A stretch of 18,247 bases of DNA from Chloroflexota bacterium (lineage in GTDB: Bacteria; Chloroflexota; UBA6077), in assembly GCA_021845945.1 (NCBI GenBank), contig JAJZRD010000049.1, positions 1 through 18,247 of the forward strand. Direction: 5' to 3'. The position numbers were made by a program, and so were the translations under genes. Positions 209 to 15,847 of this stretch are shown piece after piece. How positions within the stretch are numbered: the stretch's first letter is position 1; each line of letters opens with the position of its first letter. The notes under the pieces were generated by a model. It had not been told where the DNA came from, ran no database searches, and saw only the letters and a program-made list of their open reading frames with translations.

Positions 209-307
209 TGGCGGAGGCGCATGGGAGTCGAACCCACCCGGGACGGCGATTACCGCCCCGCAGACGGTTTTGAAGACCGCGAGGCCCACCGGGACCCGTC
301 CACCTCC
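209..307 (-). tRNA. selC: tRNA-Sec (anticodon UCA)
   Basis: Read on the minus strand this is a 99-nt tRNA starting GGAGGTGG and ending in encoded CCA (209-211) after discriminator G. The anticodon loop is CUUCAAA with anticodon UCA (plus-strand TGA at 271-273). Family hallmarks are all visible: six-pair D stem (GGGUCC with GGGCCU), long variable arm closed by a CGGGG/UCCCG-type stem, and T-loop UUCGACU. The acceptor stem gives seven pairs (one U-G), then a G opposite G at position 8, where bacterial tRNA-Sec normally has an eighth pair. It inserts selenocysteine at UGA with SelB, so the organism should encode selenoproteins. A TATAAT box lies upstream. No selenoprotein gene is seen in the window. 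Confidence 0.95.
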
Positions 308-3571: not shown

Positions 3572-4210
3572 CTACGAGTCTCTCCCGCGGGTCATGCGGA
3601 AGGACAGGGTCGCCAGGCGGGCAGCGAGATCCTCGTTGGAGACCACGATCCCGGACGGCACTTCCAGCTTCACCGGGGCGAAGTTCAGGATCGCCTTGAT
3701 CCCCGCGGCAACCAACTGGTTGGCCACCTTCTGCGCCGCAGCGGAGGGCACGGTCAGGATCGCCATCTGGATGCTGCGCTCCTGGATGAAGCGGGGCAGA
3801 TCCTCGACGTCCAGCACCTCCAGACCGCCCACCCTGGTGCCAACCTTCGCGGGATCCTGGTCAAACAGCGCCGCTATGCAGAGCGAGTAGGTGGCGAAGC
3901 CGGGGTAGGAGGCGATGGCACTCCCCAACCGCCCTGCCCCCACCACGATGACCTCTTTCTCCATGGCCAGGCCAAGCAGCTCGGCCAGCCTTCGCTGCAT
4001 CTCGGCCACGTCGTAGCCAATCCCAGGACGGCCGAACTCTCCCAGATAGCCCAGATCCTTGCGCACCTGGGCGGCCGGGACCCCCGCGGCATCCCCCAGC
4101 ATCTCCGAGGACACGACGGTCAGCCGCTGCTCCCGAGCCTCCAGGAGATATCGATAGTAGAGGGGGAGACGGTTCAGACTCGGGGTTGGGACCTTCGGGC
4201 GATTCACCAC
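3572..4210 (-). CDS. rex: Redox-sensing transcriptional repressor Rex
   Basis: The 212-residue protein is the usual Rex size. Residues 1-80 form the winged-helix DNA-binding domain, with the characteristic LPLYYRYL at 15-22 and QVRKDLGYLGEFGRPGIGY at 48-66. The NAD(H)-binding Rossmann fold follows, with GAGRLGSA at 91-98. NFAPVKLEVP near the C-terminus is also typical. Rex binds its operators when NADH/NAD is low and releases them when NADH rises, controlling anaerobic and respiratory genes. The GTG start at 4210 follows AGGAGGT (4219-4225); a second GTG directly after it is also possible. It is divergent from hemA, an association known from Streptomyces, where Rex controls rex-hemACD. A candidate operator over its own start region suggests autoregulation. 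Confidence 0.95.
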   Translation of the reverse strand: MVNRPKVPTPSLNRLPLYYRYLLEAREQRLTVVSSEMLGDAAGVPAAQVRKDLGYLGEFGRPGIGYDVAEMQRRLAELLGLAMEKEVIVVGAGRLGSAIASYPGFATYSLCIAALFDQDPAKVGTRVGGLEVLDVEDLPRFIQERSIQMAILTVPSAAAQKVANQLVAAGIKAILNFAPVKLEVPSGIVVSNEDLAARLATLSFRMTRGRDS

Positions 4211-4620: not shown

Positions 4621-5889
4621 ATGGAGATAGTCGTCGTCGGTGTAAACCACAAGGCAGCCCCGGTCCAGGTTCGCGAGCATCTGGCCTTCACCCCCGCCCA
4701 GATGGAGTCGGCCCTCTCCGCCCTGCGGGAGAAGACTCCGGAGGCAGTGCTCCTCTCCACCTGCAACCGCACCGAGATCTACGCGATCGTTCCCTCCGCC
4801 GAGGACGGCGCCAGAGAGGTAGCCAACTTCCTCGCGGACTTTCACGCCGTCCCGGTGGAGCGCTTCGCCCCCTACCTCTTCTCCCAGAGCGGAAGGGAGG
4901 CGGTCGCCCACCTCTTCGCCGTGGCCTCGGGCCTCGACTCCATGATCCTCGGCGAGCCCCAGATCCTCGGCCAGGTTCGGGAGGCCTACCTGGCTGCCCT
5001 GGCCCAGGATACGGCGGGCACCCTGCTCTCCTGGGTTTTCCACCACGCCATGAAGGTCGGCAAGCAGGTGCGTACCGACACCAACATCAGCCGCAGCGCC
5101 GTCTCGGTCAGCCACGCCGCCGTCGAGCTGGCCAAAGGGATCTTCGGCACCCTCGCGGACCGCTCGATCTTGCTGGTGGGGGCCGGCGAGATGGGGCAGC
5201 TGGCGGCCCGAAACCTCATGGACAACGGCTGCGCCAGGCTCGTCGTGACCAACCGCACCTATAGCAGGGCCGCGGAGCTGGCAACCCGCTTCGGGGGAAC
5301 CCCAAAGGAGTTCGACCGGCTGCCGGAGCTGCTGGGGGAGGTGGACGTCGCCATCTCCGCCACGGGCGCCCCCAGCTTCGTTCTCACTGCCGAGATGGTG
5401 CGCCAGGCTCTGCGGGGCCGCGCCGGGCGTCCCCTGATCCTGATAGACATCGCCGTCCCCCGGGACGTGGACCCGCTGGTGCGGCAATTCGAGCAGGTAC
5501 TCCTTCACGACATCGACGACCTGCAGGCCGTATGCACGGCCAACCTGGAGGAGCGCCGCAAGGAGGTGGGTCGCGCCCAGGGGATCATCGACGCCGAGCT
5601 GAATCTGTTCGAAACCTGGTGGGGAAGCCTGCAGGTGGTACCTACCATCAAGGCCCTCCGCGATCGCGCCGAGGCGATCCGCCAGATCGAACTGCAGAAG
5701 GCACTCCCTCGTCTGGGCGAGCTGACCGACCGCCAGCGCTCGGTCGTGGAAGCCCTTACTGTAGGCATCGTCAACAAGATGCTCCACCAGCCTACTGTGC
5801 GACTGAAGGCTCAAGGGGGCAACGGCGCCGGCACCAACTACGTCCAGATCCTTCGGGAGCTCTTCGCCCTGGAGGAGAGCCGGGCCTAG
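4621..5889 (+). CDS. hemA: Glutamyl-tRNA reductase
   Basis: The 422-residue protein is full length for HemA. It reduces glutamyl-tRNA(Glu) with NADPH to glutamate-1-semialdehyde, the first committed step of C5 tetrapyrrole synthesis. The nucleophile Cys48 lies in LLSTCNRTE. The family signature GLDSMILGEPQILGQV is at 104-119 and the nucleotide-binding GAGEMG at 187-192. DIAVPRDVDP and the C-terminal dimerisation helices (from about 310) are present. ATG 4621 has AAGGCAGG just upstream. Products include siroheme and cobamides, which the sulfite reductase and CbiA-type genes downstream need. No hemC or hemB follows; the next gene is convergent. A sigma-70 promoter and a Rex-like dyad precede it. 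Confidence 0.97.
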   Translation: MEIVVVGVNHKAAPVQVREHLAFTPAQMESALSALREKTPEAVLLSTCNRTEIYAIVPSAEDGAREVANFLADFHAVPVERFAPYLFSQSGREAVAHLFAVASGLDSMILGEPQILGQVREAYLAALAQDTAGTLLSWVFHHAMKVGKQVRTDTNISRSAVSVSHAAVELAKGIFGTLADRSILLVGAGEMGQLAARNLMDNGCARLVVTNRTYSRAAELATRFGGTPKEFDRLPELLGEVDVAISATGAPSFVLTAEMVRQALRGRAGRPLILIDIAVPRDVDPLVRQFEQVLLHDIDDLQAVCTANLEERRKEVGRAQGIIDAELNLFETWWGSLQVVPTIKALRDRAEAIRQIELQKALPRLGELTDRQRSVVEALTVGIVNKMLHQPTVRLKAQGGNGAGTNYVQILRELFALEESRA

Positions 5890-5909: not shown

Positions 5910-6678
5910 CTACTCTTCCGGCATCAGGATGTGCTTGGGCGGCATCGGCGTGGGGGCCGGCATGGCGATCATGCCGGGATAGGGCACCCTCTTGGAGCGC
6001 TCCCGGATCCCCTCCAGCAATGCCTCCAGCTTCGAGCCGGGGAAGGCCAAGCTCATCTGGGTACGCTCGATCCCCGCGTAGTTGCGACCGCCGGCGCAGG
6101 CCGAGGTGAGGCCGATCTTGCCGAGGTAGCCGGCCCTCACGGCGCCGTAAGCGCACACCAGGCTGTTGGTGCCCACCTCTATGGTGAGGGGCGCGTCGCC
6201 CGTGGCGTACAGGTAGTCGTCCAGGGCGAAGTAGGCCTGCCAGGGCACCACCACCATCAGGACGGCATCCGGCTCGAATGAGGCCTTGGCCAGGGGCGCC
6301 ACCGCCAGACCCTGGACCTCCCCCGCCGGCATGGCCGGCTTGGAGGCGATCAGCTTTCGGGCCGCCTCCGGATTCGGGGCATAGACCCCCACGTGGTTCT
6401 TGATCGCCTTCTCCAATCAGCGCTGCGTCTTGCCTGGGATCGTACATCCCGAAGGCGATCCGGGCGTTGGGGCACCCCAGGTTCTCCCGGGTCACCCAGA
6501 AGGGGTAACCACCGGTGGCCGCGGCCGAGAGGAACTGGCAGAAGGTCAGCACCTTGCTTCTCTCCAGCAGCCCGTCGGGGGGTTCCTTCCCCACCGGCAC
6601 CATCCTGACCGCCACCGGCGCGGCGTCGAGTCGCAGTCGCGCCTCCAGGGCGGAGGCCATCTCGGCGTTGCTCACCAT
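5910..6678 (-). pseudogene. DUF169 cysteine-containing protein, broken by a one-base frameshift
   Basis: Two adjacent minus-strand frames make one DUF169 protein. The first part, from ATG 6678 (GAGGAG upstream), gives about 87 residues with Cys47 (TFCQFL) and Cys69 (LGCPNARIAFGMYDP). Near 6411-6416 the match jumps frame and resumes as EKAIKNHVGVYAPNPE, running to TAG at 5910 with later cysteines in SLVCAYG and TSACAGGRNY. The span is 769 nt, one base more than 256 codons, so deleting one base around CTGATTGGAG restores a 255-aa protein, normal for the family. The spot is not a homopolymer, so a true mutation or an assembly error are both possible. Unshifted translation would give a scrambled second half. 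DUF169 function is unknown; it is common in anaerobes. It is last in the dsr direction. Confidence 0.85.
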
Positions 6679-6811: not shown

Positions 6812-7018
6812 CTACTCGTCCGGGATGATGGACGCCAGGAACTGCAGGGCCGCCACCACCTCCGGGTCGGCCCCGCTCGCCAGATCCTCCTCGTCCCCGT
6901 CGCTTTTCCAGGAACCGAAGAGAGCGCTCAGGTTGGACAAGGCGGCTCGCAGCCACTCCAGCAGGCCGGAGGTCGGCTGCCCAACCTCCCAGCTCCGGGC
7001 CTGTTCAGCCTCTATCAC
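6812..7018 (-). CDS. Small hypothetical protein (68 aa) coupled to the amidase gene
   Basis: It starts at GTG 7018, overlapping the TGA of the amidase gene by four bases (GTGA), and ends at TAG 6812. The protein is acidic. A Leu/Ala/Trp-rich amphipathic stretch (LLEWLRAALSNLSALFGSW, about 19-37) is followed by an acidic linker (DGDEEDL) and a C-terminal helix-like segment (EVVAALQFLASIIPDE). There are no cysteines or signal peptide. I recognise no family. Reality rests on the tight overlap, the same pattern as the other junctions of this operon. It could be a small accessory or chaperone-like protein, but that is a guess. Confidence 0.55.
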   Translation of the reverse strand: MIEAEQARSWEVGQPTSGLLEWLRAALSNLSALFGSWKSDGDEEDLASGADPEVVAALQFLASIIPDE

Positions 7019-8418
7019 GTCCGTCCCCCTTTGCTGCCCGCGGTCCGGCCCCGCTGCTGCTCGGCCGCCGCCACAAAGCTGTCGGCCCAGCCCGGTGCCG
7101 CCAGGGCATGAAGATGGGTGTAGGCCGCCAGAACGTTCCCAACTACCAGACCGTCGTGGTGATCGTCGTCGATCCCGGCTCCCTTCCGCAGCCGGTAGGC
7201 GAAGGCCGCTCTCCTTCTGTCCAGGGAAGCCACTCGAGTGTTGTGGAACTCGTGTCCCCTCAGCACCGTGCCGCGACGGAAGAAGGGGTTATCGGCCACC
7301 ACCTCCGCCTCGGAGTATCCGTGTCCCTGGGGTTTGCTCGTCATCTCTATCTCGCAGGTTAGGGCACCAACCATCTCGCAGGATCGGCCTTCCCATCGGA
7401 TCCTCTCCGATAGGTAGATCAGCCCGGCGCACTCGGCGTAGACGGGCATGCCGGCCTGGATCCGCCGCCGGAGATCCTCCCGCAGGGAGTGATTGGCCTC
7501 CAACTGCTCCATGAACAGCTCGGGGAACCCCCCGCCCACGTAGAGCGCGTCCACCTCGGGCAACGTCGGGTCCGCCAGGGAGTCCACGGACTGGAGCGTC
7601 GCCCCGGCCCGCTCCAGAGCCTCCAGATTCTCGGGGTAGTAGAAGGTGAAGACCCTGTCCAGCAGCACCCCGATCCTCACCGAGCGCCCGCCGGCGCCAC
7701 GGGTCAGACCGCCGCCATCGGGTAGCGGAGGGGCGGAGCGCGCGATCTCCAGGATGCGGTTCAGATCCAGATGCTCCACGGCCGCGCGGCGAGCGTTCTC
7801 GATGGCCGGCACCAGCCTATCGTCCTCGGTCCTGGGGATCAGTCCCAGGTGGCGATCGGGGATGGAGAGCAGCTCGGACTTGGGCACGCAGCCGAGGACC
7901 GGGATCCCGCAGTAGCGCTCGATGGCGCCCACCAGCACCCTCTCGTGGCGGCAGCGGGCCACGTTGTTCAGCACCACCCCTGCCAGATTCACGTCCGGCT
8001 CGAAGTGCTGGTAGCCGCTCACCAGGGCGGCCACGCTCCGGGTCATCCGGGTGGCGTCCACCACCAGCAGGACGGGAGCCTTCAGCAGCCTGGACAGATG
8101 GGCGGTGCTGCCGCTGCCCTCCAGGTCCACCCCGTCGTACAGCCCCATCGCCCCCTCGATGACGGCCACGTCGGTGCCCCTGGCGCCCTCTTGAAAGGCC
8201 GCCAGGGTGGACTCCTCGCCCATCAAGAAGAGATCCAGGTTCCGGCAGGGCCTGCCTCCCGCTCCCGTCAGCCAGCTGGGATCGATGTAATCCGGCCCCT
8301 TCTTGAAGGGCTGAACCGCCAGCCCCATCCCGGCCAGTGCCGCCACCAGCCCGATGGCCACCGTGGTCTTGCCGGAGCGCCCCCGGGGCGCAGCGACCAC
8401 CAACCGCGGATAGTTCAT
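7015..8418 (-). CDS. dsrN: CbiA/DsrN-type a,c-diamide synthase (probable siroheme amidase)
   Basis: The 467-residue protein has the full CbiA layout. The N-terminal dethiobiotin-synthetase-like ATPase has loop APRGRSGKTT (10-19), then GPDYIDP (41-47) and EGAMGLYDG (88-96). A C-terminal class I glutamine amidotransferase follows, with Cys330 in YAECAGL, GHEFHNTR (388-395) and YTHLH (433-437). CbiA uses ATP and glutamine to amidate the a and c side chains of cobyrinate. The homologue DsrN, encoded next to dsrAB in sulfur bacteria, is thought to amidate siroheme. Position two genes after dsrB, with ATGA overlap to the gene before it, favours DsrN. No other cobalamin gene is here, but a role in cobamide synthesis cannot be excluded. 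ATG 8418 directly precedes the ATPase loop. Confidence 0.85.
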   Translation of the reverse strand: MNYPRLVVAAPRGRSGKTTVAIGLVAALAGMGLAVQPFKKGPDYIDPSWLTGAGGRPCRNLDLFLMGEESTLAAFQEGARGTDVAVIEGAMGLYDGVDLEGSGSTAHLSRLLKAPVLLVVDATRMTRSVAALVSGYQHFEPDVNLAGVVLNNVARCRHERVLVGAIERYCGIPVLGCVPKSELLSIPDRHLGLIPRTEDDRLVPAIENARRAAVEHLDLNRILEIARSAPPLPDGGGLTRGAGGRSVRIGVLLDRVFTFYYPENLEALERAGATLQSVDSLADPTLPEVDALYVGGGFPELFMEQLEANHSLREDLRRRIQAGMPVYAECAGLIYLSERIRWEGRSCEMVGALTCEIEMTSKPQGHGYSEAEVVADNPFFRRGTVLRGHEFHNTRVASLDRRRAAFAYRLRKGAGIDDDHHDGLVVGNVLAAYTHLHALAAPGWADSFVAAAEQQRGRTAGSKGGRT

Positions 8419-8627
8419 TGCCCGCTCCTGACCTCTCTGGGGCGCTGGATCCAGTTGCTGCACCCGGCACAGAGGATGGGGTTCTTCAAGGCGTGCTGGT
8501 AAGCCCGCCGGACGGCCTTGTTGACCCGCAGCGAGGACTCGTCGAAGACCGACATCACGTACCCGCAGCGGGGGCATTCAACCCGTATCGAGTTGGCGGC
8601 ACCAAACGTGTCTTCAGCGTGAGCCAT
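8415..8627 (-). CDS. Small zinc-ribbon protein in the dsrD position
   Basis: A 70-residue protein. It has two CxxC knuckles, CPRC near residue 18 and CAGC near residue 53, separated by a basic helical stretch (LRVNKAVRRAYQHALKN), which fits a small zinc ribbon or rubredoxin-like metal site. Its ATG (8627) overlaps the dsrB end by 14 bases and its TGA overlaps the amidase ATG, so translation is probably coupled. In classical sulfate reducers this place in dsrABDN holds dsrD, a winged-helix protein of similar length without cysteines. This protein does not resemble DsrD. A role in assembly, regulation or electron transfer for the sulfite reductase is inferred only from position. Confidence 0.8.
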   Translation of the reverse strand: MAHAEDTFGAANSIRVECPRCGYVMSVFDESSLRVNKAVRRAYQHALKNPILCAGCSNWIQRPREVRSGQ

Positions 8628-9705
8628 CGGCTCGGTCCCAACGGATCTGTAGATTGCGTCGCACCGAGAAGGGATCGAAGTCGTCGATCAGGTAGGGATC
8701 GAAGACGACCCCCACCCGCCTCAAGAAGCTGGGCCACCCGATCCGGTCGACGAAATCGCCCACCCGCTCGCCCCGGCGGGCGCTGCATCTCCACAGGTCG
8801 ATCACCCGCCCGACCACATCCAGAACCGGCCCGCACTCCAGCGGGCTCTCCAGCGGGATGAAGGGCACCAGCAAGCGGGCCAGCCGCGGCCCGCGCCCGG
8901 TGTTGCTGGCGATCCCGCCCACGGCGATTGCGACCCCGCGCTGGCCGCTCATCTGGATGGCGGCGGGGCAGACGTTGGAGCAGGAGGTGCAGCGGGTACA
9001 ACGCTCGGGGTTGATCTCCACCGACATACCCCCCCGCACGGCCTTCGGCTTGATGGCCCCCGTGGGGCACCAGAAGCAGAGCAGGGGGACGTCGCACTGG
9101 GATTCCACCAGCCTGGCATCGTCCACCTGGGGTAACCCCTTGAACACCCCCAGGAGGCCGACGTCGGCCTCGACCCCACCCCCGCACTGGTTCGGGCACC
9201 CACCGATGGAGAGCTTCAGCCACGCGGGATACCGCTGGGTCACGGCGTCGTCGAAGAAGCGATCGCCCAGGGCCTTGGCCAGGGCAGGGGAATCGATAGC
9301 CGCGTTCTGGCAGGCGACGAAGCCACCGCACGACTTGATCTGGTGCAGGGAGTTCCCGGTCCCGCCGACGGGGTAGCCCAGAGCCGCCAGCTGCTCGATC
9401 AGCTCCTCCAGCCGCTCCGGATCTACTCCCACCAGCTCGAAGGCGTTTCGGCTGGTTCGCCGCCCCACCTGGGCGTGCCGATCCACCAGATCGGCCAGCC
9501 GGCGGAAGCTGTCGGAGGACAGGAGGCCGTTGGGGGGAAGCTGGATCCGCACGGTGACGCACTCGTCGCCGCTGCTGCTGAGGTGGCGGTACACGCCGGG
9601 TCTCAGCCCCTCGTGGCGCACCCACATGCCCTCGTTGCGCAGCAGCAGATCGGGAAGCTGAGCCCGTGGATCGGGCATGATGCCGGCGGGCAGCTTGCCC
9701 TTCAT
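8614..9705 (-). CDS. dsrB: Dissimilatory sulfite reductase beta subunit (DsrB-like)
   Basis: A 363-residue protein. The region GMWVRHEGLRPGVYRHL (about 26-42) matches the DsrB N-terminus, followed by VGGTGNSLHQ (113-122). The siroheme-[4Fe-4S] site shows C126-X5-C132 and C170-X3-C174 (GGCPNQC). A ferredoxin insert carries Cys236, 239, 242 and 246 (CTRCTSCSNVCP). The C-terminal IGWPSFL and LIDDF are DsrB hallmarks. With DsrA it forms the cytoplasmic alpha2beta2 enzyme for six-electron sulfite reduction, or the reverse reaction. Classical DsrB keeps only the second Cys of CX5C and has CC-X3-C, so this pattern is unusual. Its ATG overlaps the dsrA TGA (ATGA). The frame stays open far upstream within dsrA, but homology begins at this ATG. 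Confidence 0.92.
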   Translation of the reverse strand: MKGKLPAGIMPDPRAQLPDLLLRNEGMWVRHEGLRPGVYRHLSSSGDECVTVRIQLPPNGLLSSDSFRRLADLVDRHAQVGRRTSRNAFELVGVDPERLEELIEQLAALGYPVGGTGNSLHQIKSCGGFVACQNAAIDSPALAKALGDRFFDDAVTQRYPAWLKLSIGGCPNQCGGGVEADVGLLGVFKGLPQVDDARLVESQCDVPLLCFWCPTGAIKPKAVRGGMSVEINPERCTRCTSCSNVCPAAIQMSGQRGVAIAVGGIASNTGRGPRLARLLVPFIPLESPLECGPVLDVVGRVIDLWRCSARRGERVGDFVDRIGWPSFLRRVGVVFDPYLIDDFDPFSVRRNLQIRWDRADGSR

Positions 9706-10898
9706 GGTTCCGCCCCCGCCCCAGTCTCCGGCCACACCACGAACATCCTGTGGGCGGGCTCCTCCAGGACGGCGGGGTCGGGCTCCGTCTCCATCAGCTC
9801 CAGCACCGTCCGCAGCCCCAGCCTCACCAGCATGTCGCCCACCCGCTCCTTCCGGCGACCGTAGTCGGCGTACAGGTCCAGGAAACGCTTGTGGATCTCC
9901 ACGATCTCGGCGTAGTCGGGAGGCACGGCCGGAATGAAGGGCGCGAGGACGAAGCCAACCATCGGACCGTTGGCACCTCGATGGCCGTACTTGCCGCCAG
10001 CCACCCAGGCCACGCCCCGATCGCCGCCAGGACGGATAGCGGGACACTTGTTGATGCACAGCATGCAGTGGCGGCAGGAGGCCGGATCGATCGCCACGGA
10101 ATCCCCCGAGCGCTCGATGGCGGAGCCGGGGCAGTTTCTCACCAGGTAGTCCAGATCCACCCGGCCGGTGCTCCCCGCCGAGGCCCCGGTGCCGCCCTCG
10201 TGGAGCCACCGATCCATCGACCGATGGTCCACCACCGGAGCCCCTCGGAAGACCCCCAGAAAGGCGTGATCCTTCTGCATCTGGGCCCGCACGCAGTCGT
10301 TGGGACAGCCGGAAACGGCGGTCTTCACCTTGTTGGGCATCCCTGGATACTGCTGGTCGTCCATGGTGGCCTGGCCCAGGGCGTAGGCCACGTCGGGGGC
10401 GTTGACCAGAGCCAGATCGCACCGGAAGCTGCCCGGACAGGCGGAGATGCAGCGCACGTCGTCGCCGGTGGACCCCACGTCCATCCCCAGTCCGTTGGCC
10501 GCGGCGACTGCCTCCAGCATCCTCTCCCGCTGGACGCCGAACTCGAGGCTGCTGGCGGTGGTCCAGCGCAGGTAGCCGTGGCCGTACCGGTCGGCGAGGT
10601 CGGCCAAGCCGCGCATCAGCCCGGCCGACAGGTATCCTCCGGGCACCCCCAGCAACCGAAGGCAGGTGATCTCCGAGGTGATCTCGGGGCGGTTGCTCCC
10701 GATGACGGACACGCCAGCCAGAAGGGGAGGCACCGACACGTATCCCCCCGTTCCCCACTGGGTGCGGTTCTGGCGCAGCCCGTCTTCCAGCATCCGCAGA
10801 GGGAATCCGCTCTGCCGCAACTCCCGAACGTGGCTGGGATAAGGCCCCTCCACCAGCCGGTCGCAGAGAGGACTCTCCCATTGCCGCTCGTTCCCCAC
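9702..10898 (-). CDS. dsrA: Dissimilatory sulfite reductase alpha subunit (DsrA-like)
   Basis: A 398-residue protein. EGPYPSHVREL (18-28) resembles the DsrA start EKGPWPSFVKE, and GSTGDDVR (142-149) precedes the siroheme-[4Fe-4S] ligands C154-X5-C160 and C198-X3-C202. A ferredoxin domain has Cys275, 278, 281 and 285, followed by RPGGDRGVAW. The C-terminal PPDYAEIVEI...RKERVGDMLVRLG fits DsrA. It is shorter than the roughly 435 aa of Desulfovibrio DsrA, mainly at the N-terminus. GTG 10898 is chosen for GGAGG seven bases upstream; upstream in-frame codons lack homology. It catalyses sulfite/sulfide conversion with DsrB, passing electrons and product sulfur to DsrC. No dsrC or dsrMKJOP lies in the window, so direction and partner proteins remain unknown. 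Confidence 0.92.
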   Translation of the reverse strand: MGNERQWESPLCDRLVEGPYPSHVRELRQSGFPLRMLEDGLRQNRTQWGTGGYVSVPPLLAGVSVIGSNRPEITSEITCLRLLGVPGGYLSAGLMRGLADLADRYGHGYLRWTTASSLEFGVQRERMLEAVAAANGLGMDVGSTGDDVRCISACPGSFRCDLALVNAPDVAYALGQATMDDQQYPGMPNKVKTAVSGCPNDCVRAQMQKDHAFLGVFRGAPVVDHRSMDRWLHEGGTGASAGSTGRVDLDYLVRNCPGSAIERSGDSVAIDPASCRHCMLCINKCPAIRPGGDRGVAWVAGGKYGHRGANGPMVGFVLAPFIPAVPPDYAEIVEIHKRFLDLYADYGRRKERVGDMLVRLGLRTVLELMETEPDPAVLEEPAHRMFVVWPETGAGAEP

Positions 10899-11313: not shown

Positions 11314-11952
11314 CTACCCTTCCCTATGTCGCTGGTACAGGGCCTTGTTGAAGTAGCCGTACGCACAGTTGAGGGCGCCGATGGGGTTGTGGGCCAGCGC
11401 CCGATCCTTGGCCACCAGACAGGTGACGGGAGCCTCGGAGTACTTGATGAAAAGGGAATCGTGGCCCACACAGAGGCCGAACAGCACGTTGAGGCCGGTG
11501 TCGGCTTCGTTGAGCAGCCTGGCCTGGCCGATGGGATTGCACATCGGCTCGAAGCTGCCGGGCCTCACCTGCTCCTCGTCCGACACCCCTATGTGGGCCT
11601 TGGAGATGGATCCGGTCTTGCAGCAGGCCGAAACCACGTCGAAGCCGTTGACCTCCAGCACCTTGTTCAAGATCTTGGCCTCCTGCCTCAGACCGACGCA
11701 GAAGGCCACCCCCAGCCGCTTGATCCCCAGCCTCCTGGCGAACTGCATGGTTTCCTCTACTCGGGTCCACTCGCAGTAGCCCACCGCCTCCACTACGGCA
11801 GATTCCCTGGCCATCGCCCGGATCATCGGGTCGGTGTATACCTCCCGGGTATCCACGATCTCGGGGCTCACCCTCATGGGGCAGTTGGCGGGCGCCGCCT
11901 CCAGGTGGCCCGTCCGGCAGACGAAGACGTCGCAAGTGGCGCAAACACTCAC
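11314..11952 (-). CDS. DUF1847 cysteine-rich putative metal-binding protein
   Basis: A 212-residue protein. The N-terminus CATCDVFVCRTG (Cys4, 7, 12) plus ANCPMR (Cys24) is the family's typical metal-binding start, and more cysteines recur later (GYCEWT, AFCVGL, SACCKTGS, MCNPIG, GLCVGHDS, VTCLVAKD). There is no signal peptide, so it is cytoplasmic. DUF1847 proteins are found mostly in anaerobes and have no assigned reaction; iron-sulfur or zinc binding is the usual prediction. GTG 11952 follows AGGGAGGGAAGG closely and starts right before the cysteine motif. It lies upstream of dsrAB on the same strand but is separated by 415 bp with a hairpin repeat, so co-transcription is doubtful. Length is normal. 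Confidence 0.85.
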   Translation of the reverse strand: MSVCATCDVFVCRTGHLEAAPANCPMRVSPEIVDTREVYTDPMIRAMARESAVVEAVGYCEWTRVEETMQFARRLGIKRLGVAFCVGLRQEAKILNKVLEVNGFDVVSACCKTGSISKAHIGVSDEEQVRPGSFEPMCNPIGQARLLNEADTGLNVLFGLCVGHDSLFIKYSEAPVTCLVAKDRALAHNPIGALNCAYGYFNKALYQRHREG

Positions 11953-14500: not shown

Positions 14501-15847
14501 ATGCTGCCTTCAAGAGTCAAGTTCTGGATAGCCCTTCAAGCAGTTTCCCTCCTGGTAGTGGTCCTTACCCTGCCCGTACCCTCCTCCGCTCAAAGCGACC
14601 ACGTCGACGTGGTGCCGCTGCGGGGCATCATCAACCCCGTGATGGCCAGCTACGTGGAGCGCGCCATCGGACAGGCCGAGGTGAACGAGGCGGCGGCAGT
14701 GGTGATAGAGATGGACACCCCCGGCGGCCTGGACACCTCCATGCGCGCCATCATCCAGCGTATCATGGCCTCCAAAGTTCCGGTCATCGTCTACGTAGCT
14801 CCACCGGGCGCTCGGGCCGGGTCCGCCGGCGTCTACATCACCTACGCCTCCCACGTCGCCGCCATGGCCCCCAACACCAATATCGGCTCGGCCCACCCCG
14901 TCGCCATGGGGGACAATGGGGGAGAGCAGCAGATGTCCGACACCATGCAGGAGAAGGTGACCAACGACGCCGTAGCCTACATCAAGGGGCTGGCACAGTC
15001 CCGGGGCCGCAACGCCGATTGGGCGGAGAAGGCGGTGCGGGAGAGCGTCAACGTCACCGCTCAGGAGGCGCTGAATCTCAAGGTGATCGACCTGGTCGCC
15101 GACGACCTGCCCTCCCTGCTGGAGAAGGTGGATGGACGGGAGGTGCAGCTATCCAGCGGCAAGACCACCCTGAGGACCAGGGGGCTGCCGACCCAGCGGG
15201 TCGAGATGACCCCCTTCGAGAGCCTGCTGCACGTCATAAGCGACCCCACCATCGCCTACATCCTGCTGAGCCTGGGCACCATGGGGCTGATCTTCGAGCT
15301 CTCCAACCCGGGGGCCATCCTGCCGGGGGTGGTGGGGGGGATCTGCCTGCTCTTCGCCCTCTTCGGATTGGGGACGCTTCCCGTGAACGTAGCCGGGCTG
15401 CTGCTGATCGGCTTCGCCTTCCTCCTGTTTGCGGCCGACATCTTCGCCCCCACCCACGGTGTCCTGACAGGGGGCGGGACGATCTCCTTCGTGCTGGGAT
15501 CGTTGATACTGATCAACACCCGCAACGCCCCCTTCCTGGAGATCTCGAGATCCGCCATCGTGGCGGTCAGCCTCGGCCTCACGGCCTTCTTCGCCTTCGT
15601 GGTGGGGGCCATCGTGAGGTCTCGACGCCAGCGCCCGACCACGGGACAGGAGGGATTGGTGGGGCAGGTGGGTAGAGCCAGGTCCCCTCTCGACCCCGCA
15701 GGCACGGTGTTCCTGAATGGCGAGCTGTGGAAGGCTCTCAGCGAGGCAGGGGACGTGGCCGAGGGGGAGTTGGTGGAGATCGTGGGAACTCAGGGGCTCA
15801 CCCTGGTAGTGAAACCTCGACCAGTTGAGAAGCGGTTGAGAAGCTGA
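14501..15847 (+). CDS. NfeD family membrane-bound serine protease (ClpP class)
   Basis: The 448-residue protein has the long NfeD (1510-N plus 1510-C) architecture. A signal peptide (about 1-30, cut after PSSA) is followed by a ClpP/crotonase-like protease domain at 35-230. It has MDTPGGLDTSMR, catalytic Ser108 in ARAGSAGVYI, NTNIGSAHPV, and a likely catalytic Lys152 by position. Several membrane helices span about 245-375 and an OB-fold NfeD domain lies at about 385-445 (GLVGQVGRA, GELWKA). Archaeal homologues cleave stomatin, and bacterial genes often pair with a stomatin/prohibitin gene; none is adjacent here. It has its own promoter and a very strong ribosome site. A membrane quality-control role is a family-level inference. 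Confidence 0.92.
   Translation: MLPSRVKFWIALQAVSLLVVVLTLPVPSSAQSDHVDVVPLRGIINPVMASYVERAIGQAEVNEAAAVVIEMDTPGGLDTSMRAIIQRIMASKVPVIVYVAPPGARAGSAGVYITYASHVAAMAPNTNIGSAHPVAMGDNGGEQQMSDTMQEKVTNDAVAYIKGLAQSRGRNADWAEKAVRESVNVTAQEALNLKVIDLVADDLPSLLEKVDGREVQLSSGKTTLRTRGLPTQRVEMTPFESLLHVISDPTIAYILLSLGTMGLIFELSNPGAILPGVVGGICLLFALFGLGTLPVNVAGLLLIGFAFLLFAADIFAPTHGVLTGGGTISFVLGSLILINTRNAPFLEISRSAIVAVSLGLTAFFAFVVGAIVRSRRQRPTTGQEGLVGQVGRARSPLDPAGTVFLNGELWKALSEAGDVAEGELVEIVGTQGLTLVVKPRPVEKRLRS

What the first reader, a model, noticed from the sequence alone, without database searches (positions are those of the whole stretch)
6812..10898. Compact dsrA-dsrB-zinc ribbon-dsrN-like-68aa operon beside DUF169 and DUF1847 genes
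Five genes overlap by 4-14 bp in one strand, with siroheme sulfite reductase subunits, an amidase of the DsrN kind and two small unknown proteins. DUF169 and DUF1847, both cysteine-containing and unassigned, flank it. The set could be a variant dissimilatory sulfite-reducing system with its own accessory proteins. No dsrC, dsrMKJOP, aprAB or sat is visible here.
Basis: partly seen in the sequence, partly recalled or inferred. Interest (0 to 1): 0.7.

Follow-up and report, generated by a model that had tools for sequence, protein, structure and literature searches.

The report
Ancient-type sulfite reductase operon, new partners
A likely Chloroflexota bacterium carries an operon for a deep-branching sulfite-reductase-like enzyme whose function is still untested, and the operon holds two tiny conserved proteins of unknown role at the places where the usual helper genes sit.

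Summary
The operon is real: window 6812-10898 (-) holds dsrA, dsrB, a 70-aa zinc ribbon (ZnR), a CobB/DsrN-type amidase and a 68-aa protein (P68), overlapping by 4, 14, 4 and 4 bp. DsrAB scores far below NCBI's cut-offs for ordinary DsrA/DsrB and falls with Chloroflexota homologues and the Moorella "second copy", published as "basal type I DsrAB", function unknown. DsrA keeps four basic residues known for sulfite binding, so a sulfite-type reductase is the best reading; activity is unproven. ZnR and P68 were found only in this clade's company: 5 of 12 ZnR relatives and 1 of 5 P68 relatives share an exact contig length with a clade DsrB. They sit where DsrD and DsrC sit in the published order dsrABDNC, without detectable kinship to them. 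Bacillota loci instead carry a short DsrC paralogue (17 of 17), lacking the second arm cysteine in 15. DUF169 is frame-broken here, and neither DUF gene is regularly linked to dsr in the Moorella order. A selenium role was tested and looks positional. The whole genome is not held, so dsrC, dsrMK, apr and sat elsewhere could not be checked.

The parts
9702..10898 (-). dsrA, basal type I (398 aa, GTG start): siroheme/4Fe-4S sulfite reductase alpha-like subunit with ferredoxin domain
   Evidence: Pfam NIR_SIR/NIR_SIR_ferr; TIGR02064 229.4 bits against cut-off 392.85; 49% to Moorella DsrA2; four substrate-binding basic residues kept
8614..9705 (-). dsrB, basal type I (363 aa, ATG start), CX5C + CX3C + ferredoxin cysteines
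   Evidence: TIGR02066 272.5 bits against cut-off 341.5, scored on the 345-aa frame 8614-9651; relatives; alignment A1; trees
8415..8627 (-). ZnR: 70-aa protein with CxxC-x31-CxxC, at the place of dsrD
   Evidence: 12 relatives, 28 invariant columns including all four Cys; model pLDDT 82.6; only weak fold matches
7015..8418 (-). dsrN-like siroheme amidase (467 aa), CbiA/CobB family
   Evidence: TIGR00379 475.9 bits against 261.4; 54% to the amidase of the same locus in Moorella sulfitireducens
6812..7018 (-). P68: 68-aa protein without cysteine, nearly invariant C-terminal stretch, at the place of dsrC
   Evidence: 5 relatives besides itself, 34 invariant columns; helical model of low confidence, pLDDT 63
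11314..11952 (-). DUF1847 gene upstream of dsrA, same strand, 415 bp gap; membership in the system uncertain
   Evidence: PF08901 2.3e-62; 57% homologue directly after dsrMK in L023
5910..6678 (-). DUF169 gene downstream of P68, interrupted by a frame break near 6416-6433; membership uncertain

Best explanation
This is the operon of a basal type I DsrAB, a deep-branching siroheme-[4Fe-4S] sulfite-reductase-type enzyme, with its own siroheme amidase (DsrN) and two small lineage-specific partners. Most likely DsrA and DsrB form the usual heterotetramer, DsrN amidates the siroheme, and the enzyme reduces sulfite (or a close oxyanion) at a site made by conserved Arg and Lys residues of DsrA. Shown from sequence: operon structure, clade, cofactor and substrate residues, recurrence of ZnR and P68. 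Inferred: that it reduces sulfite, that ZnR and P68 bind DsrAB or its assembly intermediates as activator and partner (they occupy the places of DsrD and DsrC in the published order dsrABDNC), and that the electron donor and sulfur acceptor are encoded elsewhere.
For: Placement: window DsrB lies among the Chloroflexota-type rows, apart from the branch of all other DsrB rows (canonical plus the P0055-P0060 group; 100/100, 1.0 changes per site); window DsrA joins Moorella DsrA2 with 100/99 (63 rows; 88 rows). Equivalog cut-offs are missed by both subunits and also by Moorella copy 2. The Arg98/Arg170/Lys211/Lys213 positions (numbering recalled from the A. fulgidus enzyme) are R/R/K/K in window DsrA and in the 9 other DsrA rows aligned. 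CX5C is present in 62 of 62 DsrB relatives outside the 34 canonical ones, which have HTQGWxHC in 34 of 34. Published DEH-C11 order dsrABDNC (PMC4959651, passages).
Against: No activity of any basal type I DsrAB is proven (PMC12948486, passages). No dsrC or dsrMK was found in the window, and the genome is not held. The roles of ZnR and P68 rest on position: hhalign finds no kinship with DsrD or DsrC (probability 0.1% each). ZnR was not found in 8 Bacillota genomes with the same enzyme (a search without a positive control) and P68 gave no hit in the Bacillota loci examined, so the enzyme probably does not need them everywhere. Window DsrA is on a long end branch (0.97), which the tree program flags as unsure.
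Confidence: 0.55

Rival explanations
1. An ordinary dissimilatory sulfite reductase of a sulfite-respiring Chloroflexota: dsrC, dsrMK and the rest lie elsewhere in the genome, and ZnR and P68 are minor local additions.
For: In Bacillota the same enzyme usually stands near normal Dsr genes: a two-cysteine dsrC in 16 of 17 loci, canonical dsrAB in 13 of 17 fetched stretches, and a canonical dsrB in 13 of the 14 genomes of the Moorella order that have the basal one. Substrate residues kept.
Against: None of these genes was found in the 18 kb window; the canonical Dehalococcoidia cluster of DEH-C11 holds dsrABCMK with dsrD and dsrN together (PMC4959651, passages); the clade has no proven sulfite-reducing activity.
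Confidence: 0.25
2. A low-flux sulfite (or nitrite) detoxifying or assimilatory reductase that works without the DsrC trisulfide cycle, fed by ferredoxin through the built-in ferredoxin domains.
For: No dsrC or dsrMK found nearby; in Bacillota the DsrC paralogue in the cluster lacks the second arm cysteine in 15 of 17 loci.
Against: That cysteine is kept in 2 of 17 loci (L007, L008), and a normal DsrC is there in 16 of 17. DsrN points to amidated siroheme, tied to dissimilatory enzymes (PMC10504309, passages); both Moorella copies were found in a proteome, role unknown (same paper).
Confidence: 0.2
3. A selenium enzyme: reduction of selenite to selenide for selenophosphate synthesis.
For: tRNA-Sec 6.5 kb beyond P68 in the window; selD follows dsrN-HTH(-tusA) in 13 of 13 loci of the Moorella order that reach so far.
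Against: Of 7 sister genomes with selD but no basal dsrB, 4 keep the same other neighbours (yceG, PF03601 or a YkuD-labelled gene) beside selD, so the cluster sits in, or was lost from, an old selD neighbourhood (L037, L039, L040, L041; the other 3, L038, L042, L043, show none). In G009 neither selD contig shows dsrN or the HTH gene (L044, L045). Outside the order selD is not in the cluster (0 of 3 stretches: L007, L008, L074) and in G007 and G008 it lies elsewhere. selD is in 21 of 22 genomes of the order whether or not they have this DsrAB. No tRNA-Sec in 21 Bacillota loci scanned.
Confidence: 0.05

Closest known systems
Basal type I DsrAB, including the Moorella second copy (PMC12948486; PMC10504309; passages of both)
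   Same: Same group by tree; 46-52% DsrB identity to the rows named Moorella; dsrN directly follows; cofactor and substrate residues shared
   Different: No DsrC paralogue, tusA, dsrMK or canonical dsrAB found beside it; ZnR and P68 present instead
Canonical dsrABDNC cluster of Dehalococcoidia (DEH-C11, PMC4959651, passages)
   Same: Gene order dsrA-dsrB-small gene-dsrN-small gene
   Different: The small genes are not DsrD or DsrC by profile comparison; DsrAB is of another lineage
CobB/CbiA/CfbB tetrapyrrole amidases
   Same: Window amidase scores over the cobB subfamily cut-off and 462 bits to CfbB, below its cut-off of 560
   Different: Encoded inside a dsr operon and 54% identical to the amidase that follows dsrAB copy 2 in Moorella

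Membership tests
Siroheme sulfite/nitrite reductase superfamily | NIR_SIR and NIR_SIR_ferr domains with CX5C-Xn-CX3C | tested here: met
Canonical DsrA/DsrB (TIGR02064, TIGR02066) | score over the equivalog cut-off | tested here: not met
   229.4 of 392.85 and 272.5 of 341.5 bits
Basal type I DsrAB | groups with Moorella second copy and Chloroflexota homologues apart from canonical DsrAB | tested here: met
   DsrA with Moorella DsrA2 100/99, though on a long branch; DsrB outside the branch of the other DsrB rows (100/100). Whether all basal DsrB rows are one clade is unresolved (p-AU 0.161)
Minimal Dsr pathway DsrABCMK(N) | DsrN | tested here: met
   CbiA/GATase_3 amidase inside the operon, 54% to the amidase of the Moorella locus; no amidase tree was built
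Minimal Dsr pathway DsrABCMK(N) | DsrC and DsrMK in the genome | not testable with these tools
   not found in the window; no whole genome held
Sulfite-reducing enzyme | four basic substrate residues in DsrA | tested here: met
   residue numbers recalled
Sulfite-reducing enzyme | measured activity | not testable with these tools
   none reported for the clade (PMC12948486, passages)
DsrD (for ZnR) | profile kinship | tested here: not met
   hhalign probability 0.1% against 3 DsrD rows
DsrC/TusE (for P68) | profile kinship and C-terminal cysteine | tested here: not met
   hhalign probability 0.1% against 7 DsrC-type rows; no cysteine in the 6 aligned P68 rows
Known zinc-ribbon family (for ZnR) | Pfam match over cut-off or clear fold match | tested here: inconclusive

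The most novel reading that the evidence does not exclude
Basal type I DsrAB is a separate kind of sulfite reductase that does not depend on the two-cysteine DsrC trisulfide cycle: in most Bacillota loci it works with a short DsrC paralogue reduced to one arm cysteine, and in Chloroflexota the DsrD and DsrC roles are taken by an unrelated zinc ribbon and by P68. (Lowered from 0.25 in my draft, because a recount showed the second cysteine kept in 2 of 17 loci.)
Probability: 0.18. Interest if true: 0.8.

Novelty: new variant of a known kind. Interest (0 to 1): 0.5.

Why it matters
Basal type I DsrAB roots published trees of one of the oldest respiratory enzymes, yet no member has a reported function. 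Two dedicated small genes in one phylum and a recurring short DsrC paralogue in the other give concrete, testable handles on what the enzyme does and whether it belongs to sulfite respiration at all.

Tried and rejected
Selenium role: followed through selD adjacency, sister loci and tRNA searches, and judged positional. Rex control of dsr: Rex is encoded at 3572-4210, but its operator consensus (recalled) has no good copy near dsrA; one match with 3 mismatches at 15825, seen in 23 of 200 shuffles. DUF169 and DUF1847 as fixed partners: not supported in the Moorella order; the loci looked at were short (mostly 1.6-3.6 kb, several at contig ends). ZnR as a wide family: 0 of 8 genomes with the same enzyme, no positive control; 2 of 398 genomes of the phylum gave weak partial hits (E about 1e-4, one with a stop inside, one covering half), taken as noise. 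ZnR fold: no row stood out. P68 fold: no usable match. Viral contigs: no relative. Defence library: no hit for ZnR, P68, the DUF169 C-part or DUF1847. Papers: no paper of the library holds both zinc ribbon and dsrAB; the listings of the other searches and the passages read showed no description of ZnR, P68 or the short DsrC paralogue. No paper was read whole and supplements could not be read, so an earlier mention is possible.

Rows left out. Tree: P0001, P0002 (near-identical to the window), P0028, P0030, P0032, P0061, P0092 (short or partial) and every second canonical row of P0062-P0096. Tree: also P0063, P0054, P0052 and A2_L007 (long branches), 13 further relatives and half of the remaining canonical rows. 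Alignment A1 used 21 of 96 hits. The phylum search missed G008, which does hold a (split) basal dsrB, so its count is a lower bound.

Corrected on recount: my draft said the DsrC paralogue has one arm cysteine in 17 of 17 loci; one search shows the second one kept in L007 and L008, so it is 15 of 17. The odds of the DsrC-free rival (0.25 to 0.2) and of the novel case (0.25 to 0.18) were lowered for that.

Full report
What is there. The window (18,247 bases, 66% GC) carries on the minus strand DUF1847 (11952-11314), dsrA (10898-9702), dsrB (9705-8614), ZnR (8627-8415), dsrN (8418-7015), P68 (7018-6812) and a frame-broken DUF169 (6678-5910). The five dsr-operon genes overlap by 4, 14, 4 and 4 bp and have third-position GC of 0.82-0.88. 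Around them lie Rex (3572-4210 -), hemA (4621-5889 +), a DUF255 thioredoxin-like protein, two response regulators, a HAD hydrolase, NfeD and a CoA ligase of the ADP-forming type (name recalled from its domains), and a tRNA-Sec gene at 209-307.

Which enzyme. DsrA scores 229 bits against the dsrA model (cut-off 393) and DsrB 272 against the dsrB model (cut-off 341); the Moorella second copy scores alike (238 and 250) while the Moorella first copy scores 584 and 495. Among 96 DsrB relatives the nearest are rows at 69-100%, of which P0007, P0019 and P0030 are named Chloroflexota by their source and P0008 Sphingomonadaceae; then rows at 42-61%, among them those named Moorella (46-52%); then a small group around a Hydrothermarchaeota MAG and the canonical rows. 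The organism of the window itself is not named; Chloroflexota is an inference from these names. Trees rooted on the DsrA/DsrB duplication put window DsrA with Moorella DsrA2 (100/99, with a long-branch warning) and window DsrB outside the branch that holds the canonical rows and the P0055-P0060 group (100/100, length 1.0); whether all basal DsrB rows form one clade is open (p-AU 0.161). [quoted passage not shown] The clade itself is therefore not new.

What the residues say. All ten DsrA rows compared, the window's included, keep the four basic residues known for substrate binding (numbering recalled), and both window subunits keep the full cysteine set. DsrB relatives outside the 34 canonical ones have CX5C in 62 of 62; the canonical ones have HTQGWxHC with a double cysteine further on in 34 of 34. 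This fits a working siroheme reductase for sulfite or a similar oxyanion. It does not prove the substrate.

The small genes. ZnR has 12 relatives in a database of 5.8 billion proteins (a search limited to proteins sharing short words), 66-87% identical in the alignment, with all four cysteines invariant. Five of the 12 lie on contigs whose exact length equals that of a contig with a clade DsrB (24,406; 16,217; 2,703; 4,470; 2,824 bases), which I take as the same contigs. P68 has five relatives besides itself; one lies on a contig of the same 24,406 bases; its C-terminal part is nearly invariant. ZnR models as a small strand-helix-strand fold with two CxxC knuckles (pLDDT 82.6); the fold searches give only weak matches, many of them to small ribosomal zinc-ribbon chains (bL33 by my reading), the top one by Z to an unrelated pilin. 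P68 models as helices at low confidence. Both stand where DsrD and DsrC stand in the published Dehalococcoidia order dsrABDNC (PMC4959651, passages), but profile comparison shows no kinship. Their role as partners is a proposal.

The Bacillota counterpart. In 17 of 17 Bacillota loci with this DsrAB there is a short DsrC paralogue that ends in a cysteine. It lacks the second arm cysteine in 15 and keeps it in 2 (L007, L008, both outside the Moorella order). A normal two-cysteine DsrC is also present in 16 of 17; the seventeenth is cut by its contig. In 11 of the 14 loci of the Moorella order the run is dsrM-dsrK-dsrC-dsrC2-dsrA2-dsrB2-dsrN-HTH-(tusA)-selD; the other three (L004, L006, L032) differ upstream or are cut. 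Outside the order two loci read dsrA2-dsrB2-dsrN-HTH-dsrC2-dsrA1-dsrB1-dsrC followed by weak DsrM- and DsrK-like matches (L007, L074). ZnR was not found in the 8 genomes searched, without a positive control. In the order, 14 of 22 genomes carry the basal enzyme and 13 of these 14 also a canonical dsrB; in an even draw from the phylum 13 of 398 pass 1e-110, a lower bound.

Flanking DUF genes. DUF1847 occurs in 9 of 22 genomes of the order and lies directly after dsrMK in one (G004, L023, 57% identical to the window's); DUF169 occurs in 17 of 22, and none of the 12 short loci fetched shows dsrABN beside it. One paper's table lists a DUF169 gene next to a TauE-type sulfite exporter among nitrate-fitness genes of Desulfovibrio G20 (PMC4001038, one passage). 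Their tie to this system stays open for Chloroflexota, whose flanks could not be fetched.

Selenium. selD follows the cluster in 13 of 13 loci of the order that reach so far, and the window has tRNA-Sec. But 4 of 7 sister genomes without the basal dsrB keep the same other neighbours beside selD, G009 shows selD away from dsrN, three loci outside the order lack it, selD is in 21 of 22 genomes anyway, and none of 21 Bacillota loci scanned holds tRNA-Sec. I rate this unlikely.

Verdict. Without the genome, the pathway cannot be called dissimilatory.

Noticed in passing
window 209-307 (-): Selenocysteine tRNA gene, 70 bits to RF01852; the organism probably makes selenoproteins. A Moorella SelD query found no selD in the window; selA and selB were not searched.
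   Followed up: partly
window 5910-6678 (-): DUF169 gene is split over two frames near 6416-6433: sequencing error or pseudogene, undecided.
   Followed up: no
window 3572-4210 (-): Rex redox repressor divergent from hemA; 40% to the Rex gene that also lies upstream of the Moorella dsr cluster.
   Followed up: partly
L001:8589-8843 and 16 further Bacillota loci: Short DsrC paralogue ending in a terminal cysteine in the cluster of basal type I dsrAB in 17 of 17 loci; the second arm cysteine is missing in 15 and kept in L007 and L008.
   Followed up: partly
L001:12569-13614 and like loci: A protein with several XRE-type HTH domains follows dsrN in the 16 Bacillota loci whose downstream sequence was held; in 10 of 13 loci of the Moorella order tusA follows it.
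   Followed up: no
L015 (G017) and G007: The search reports one stop inside the basal dsrB match in G017 (TAG) and one in G007 (TGA).
   Followed up: no
L023:1745-2398: DUF1847 directly downstream of dsrM-dsrK in a Clostridia MAG, followed further on by a second DsrK-like gene and a long FAD-type oxidoreductase-like frame (by reading, not searched).
   Followed up: partly
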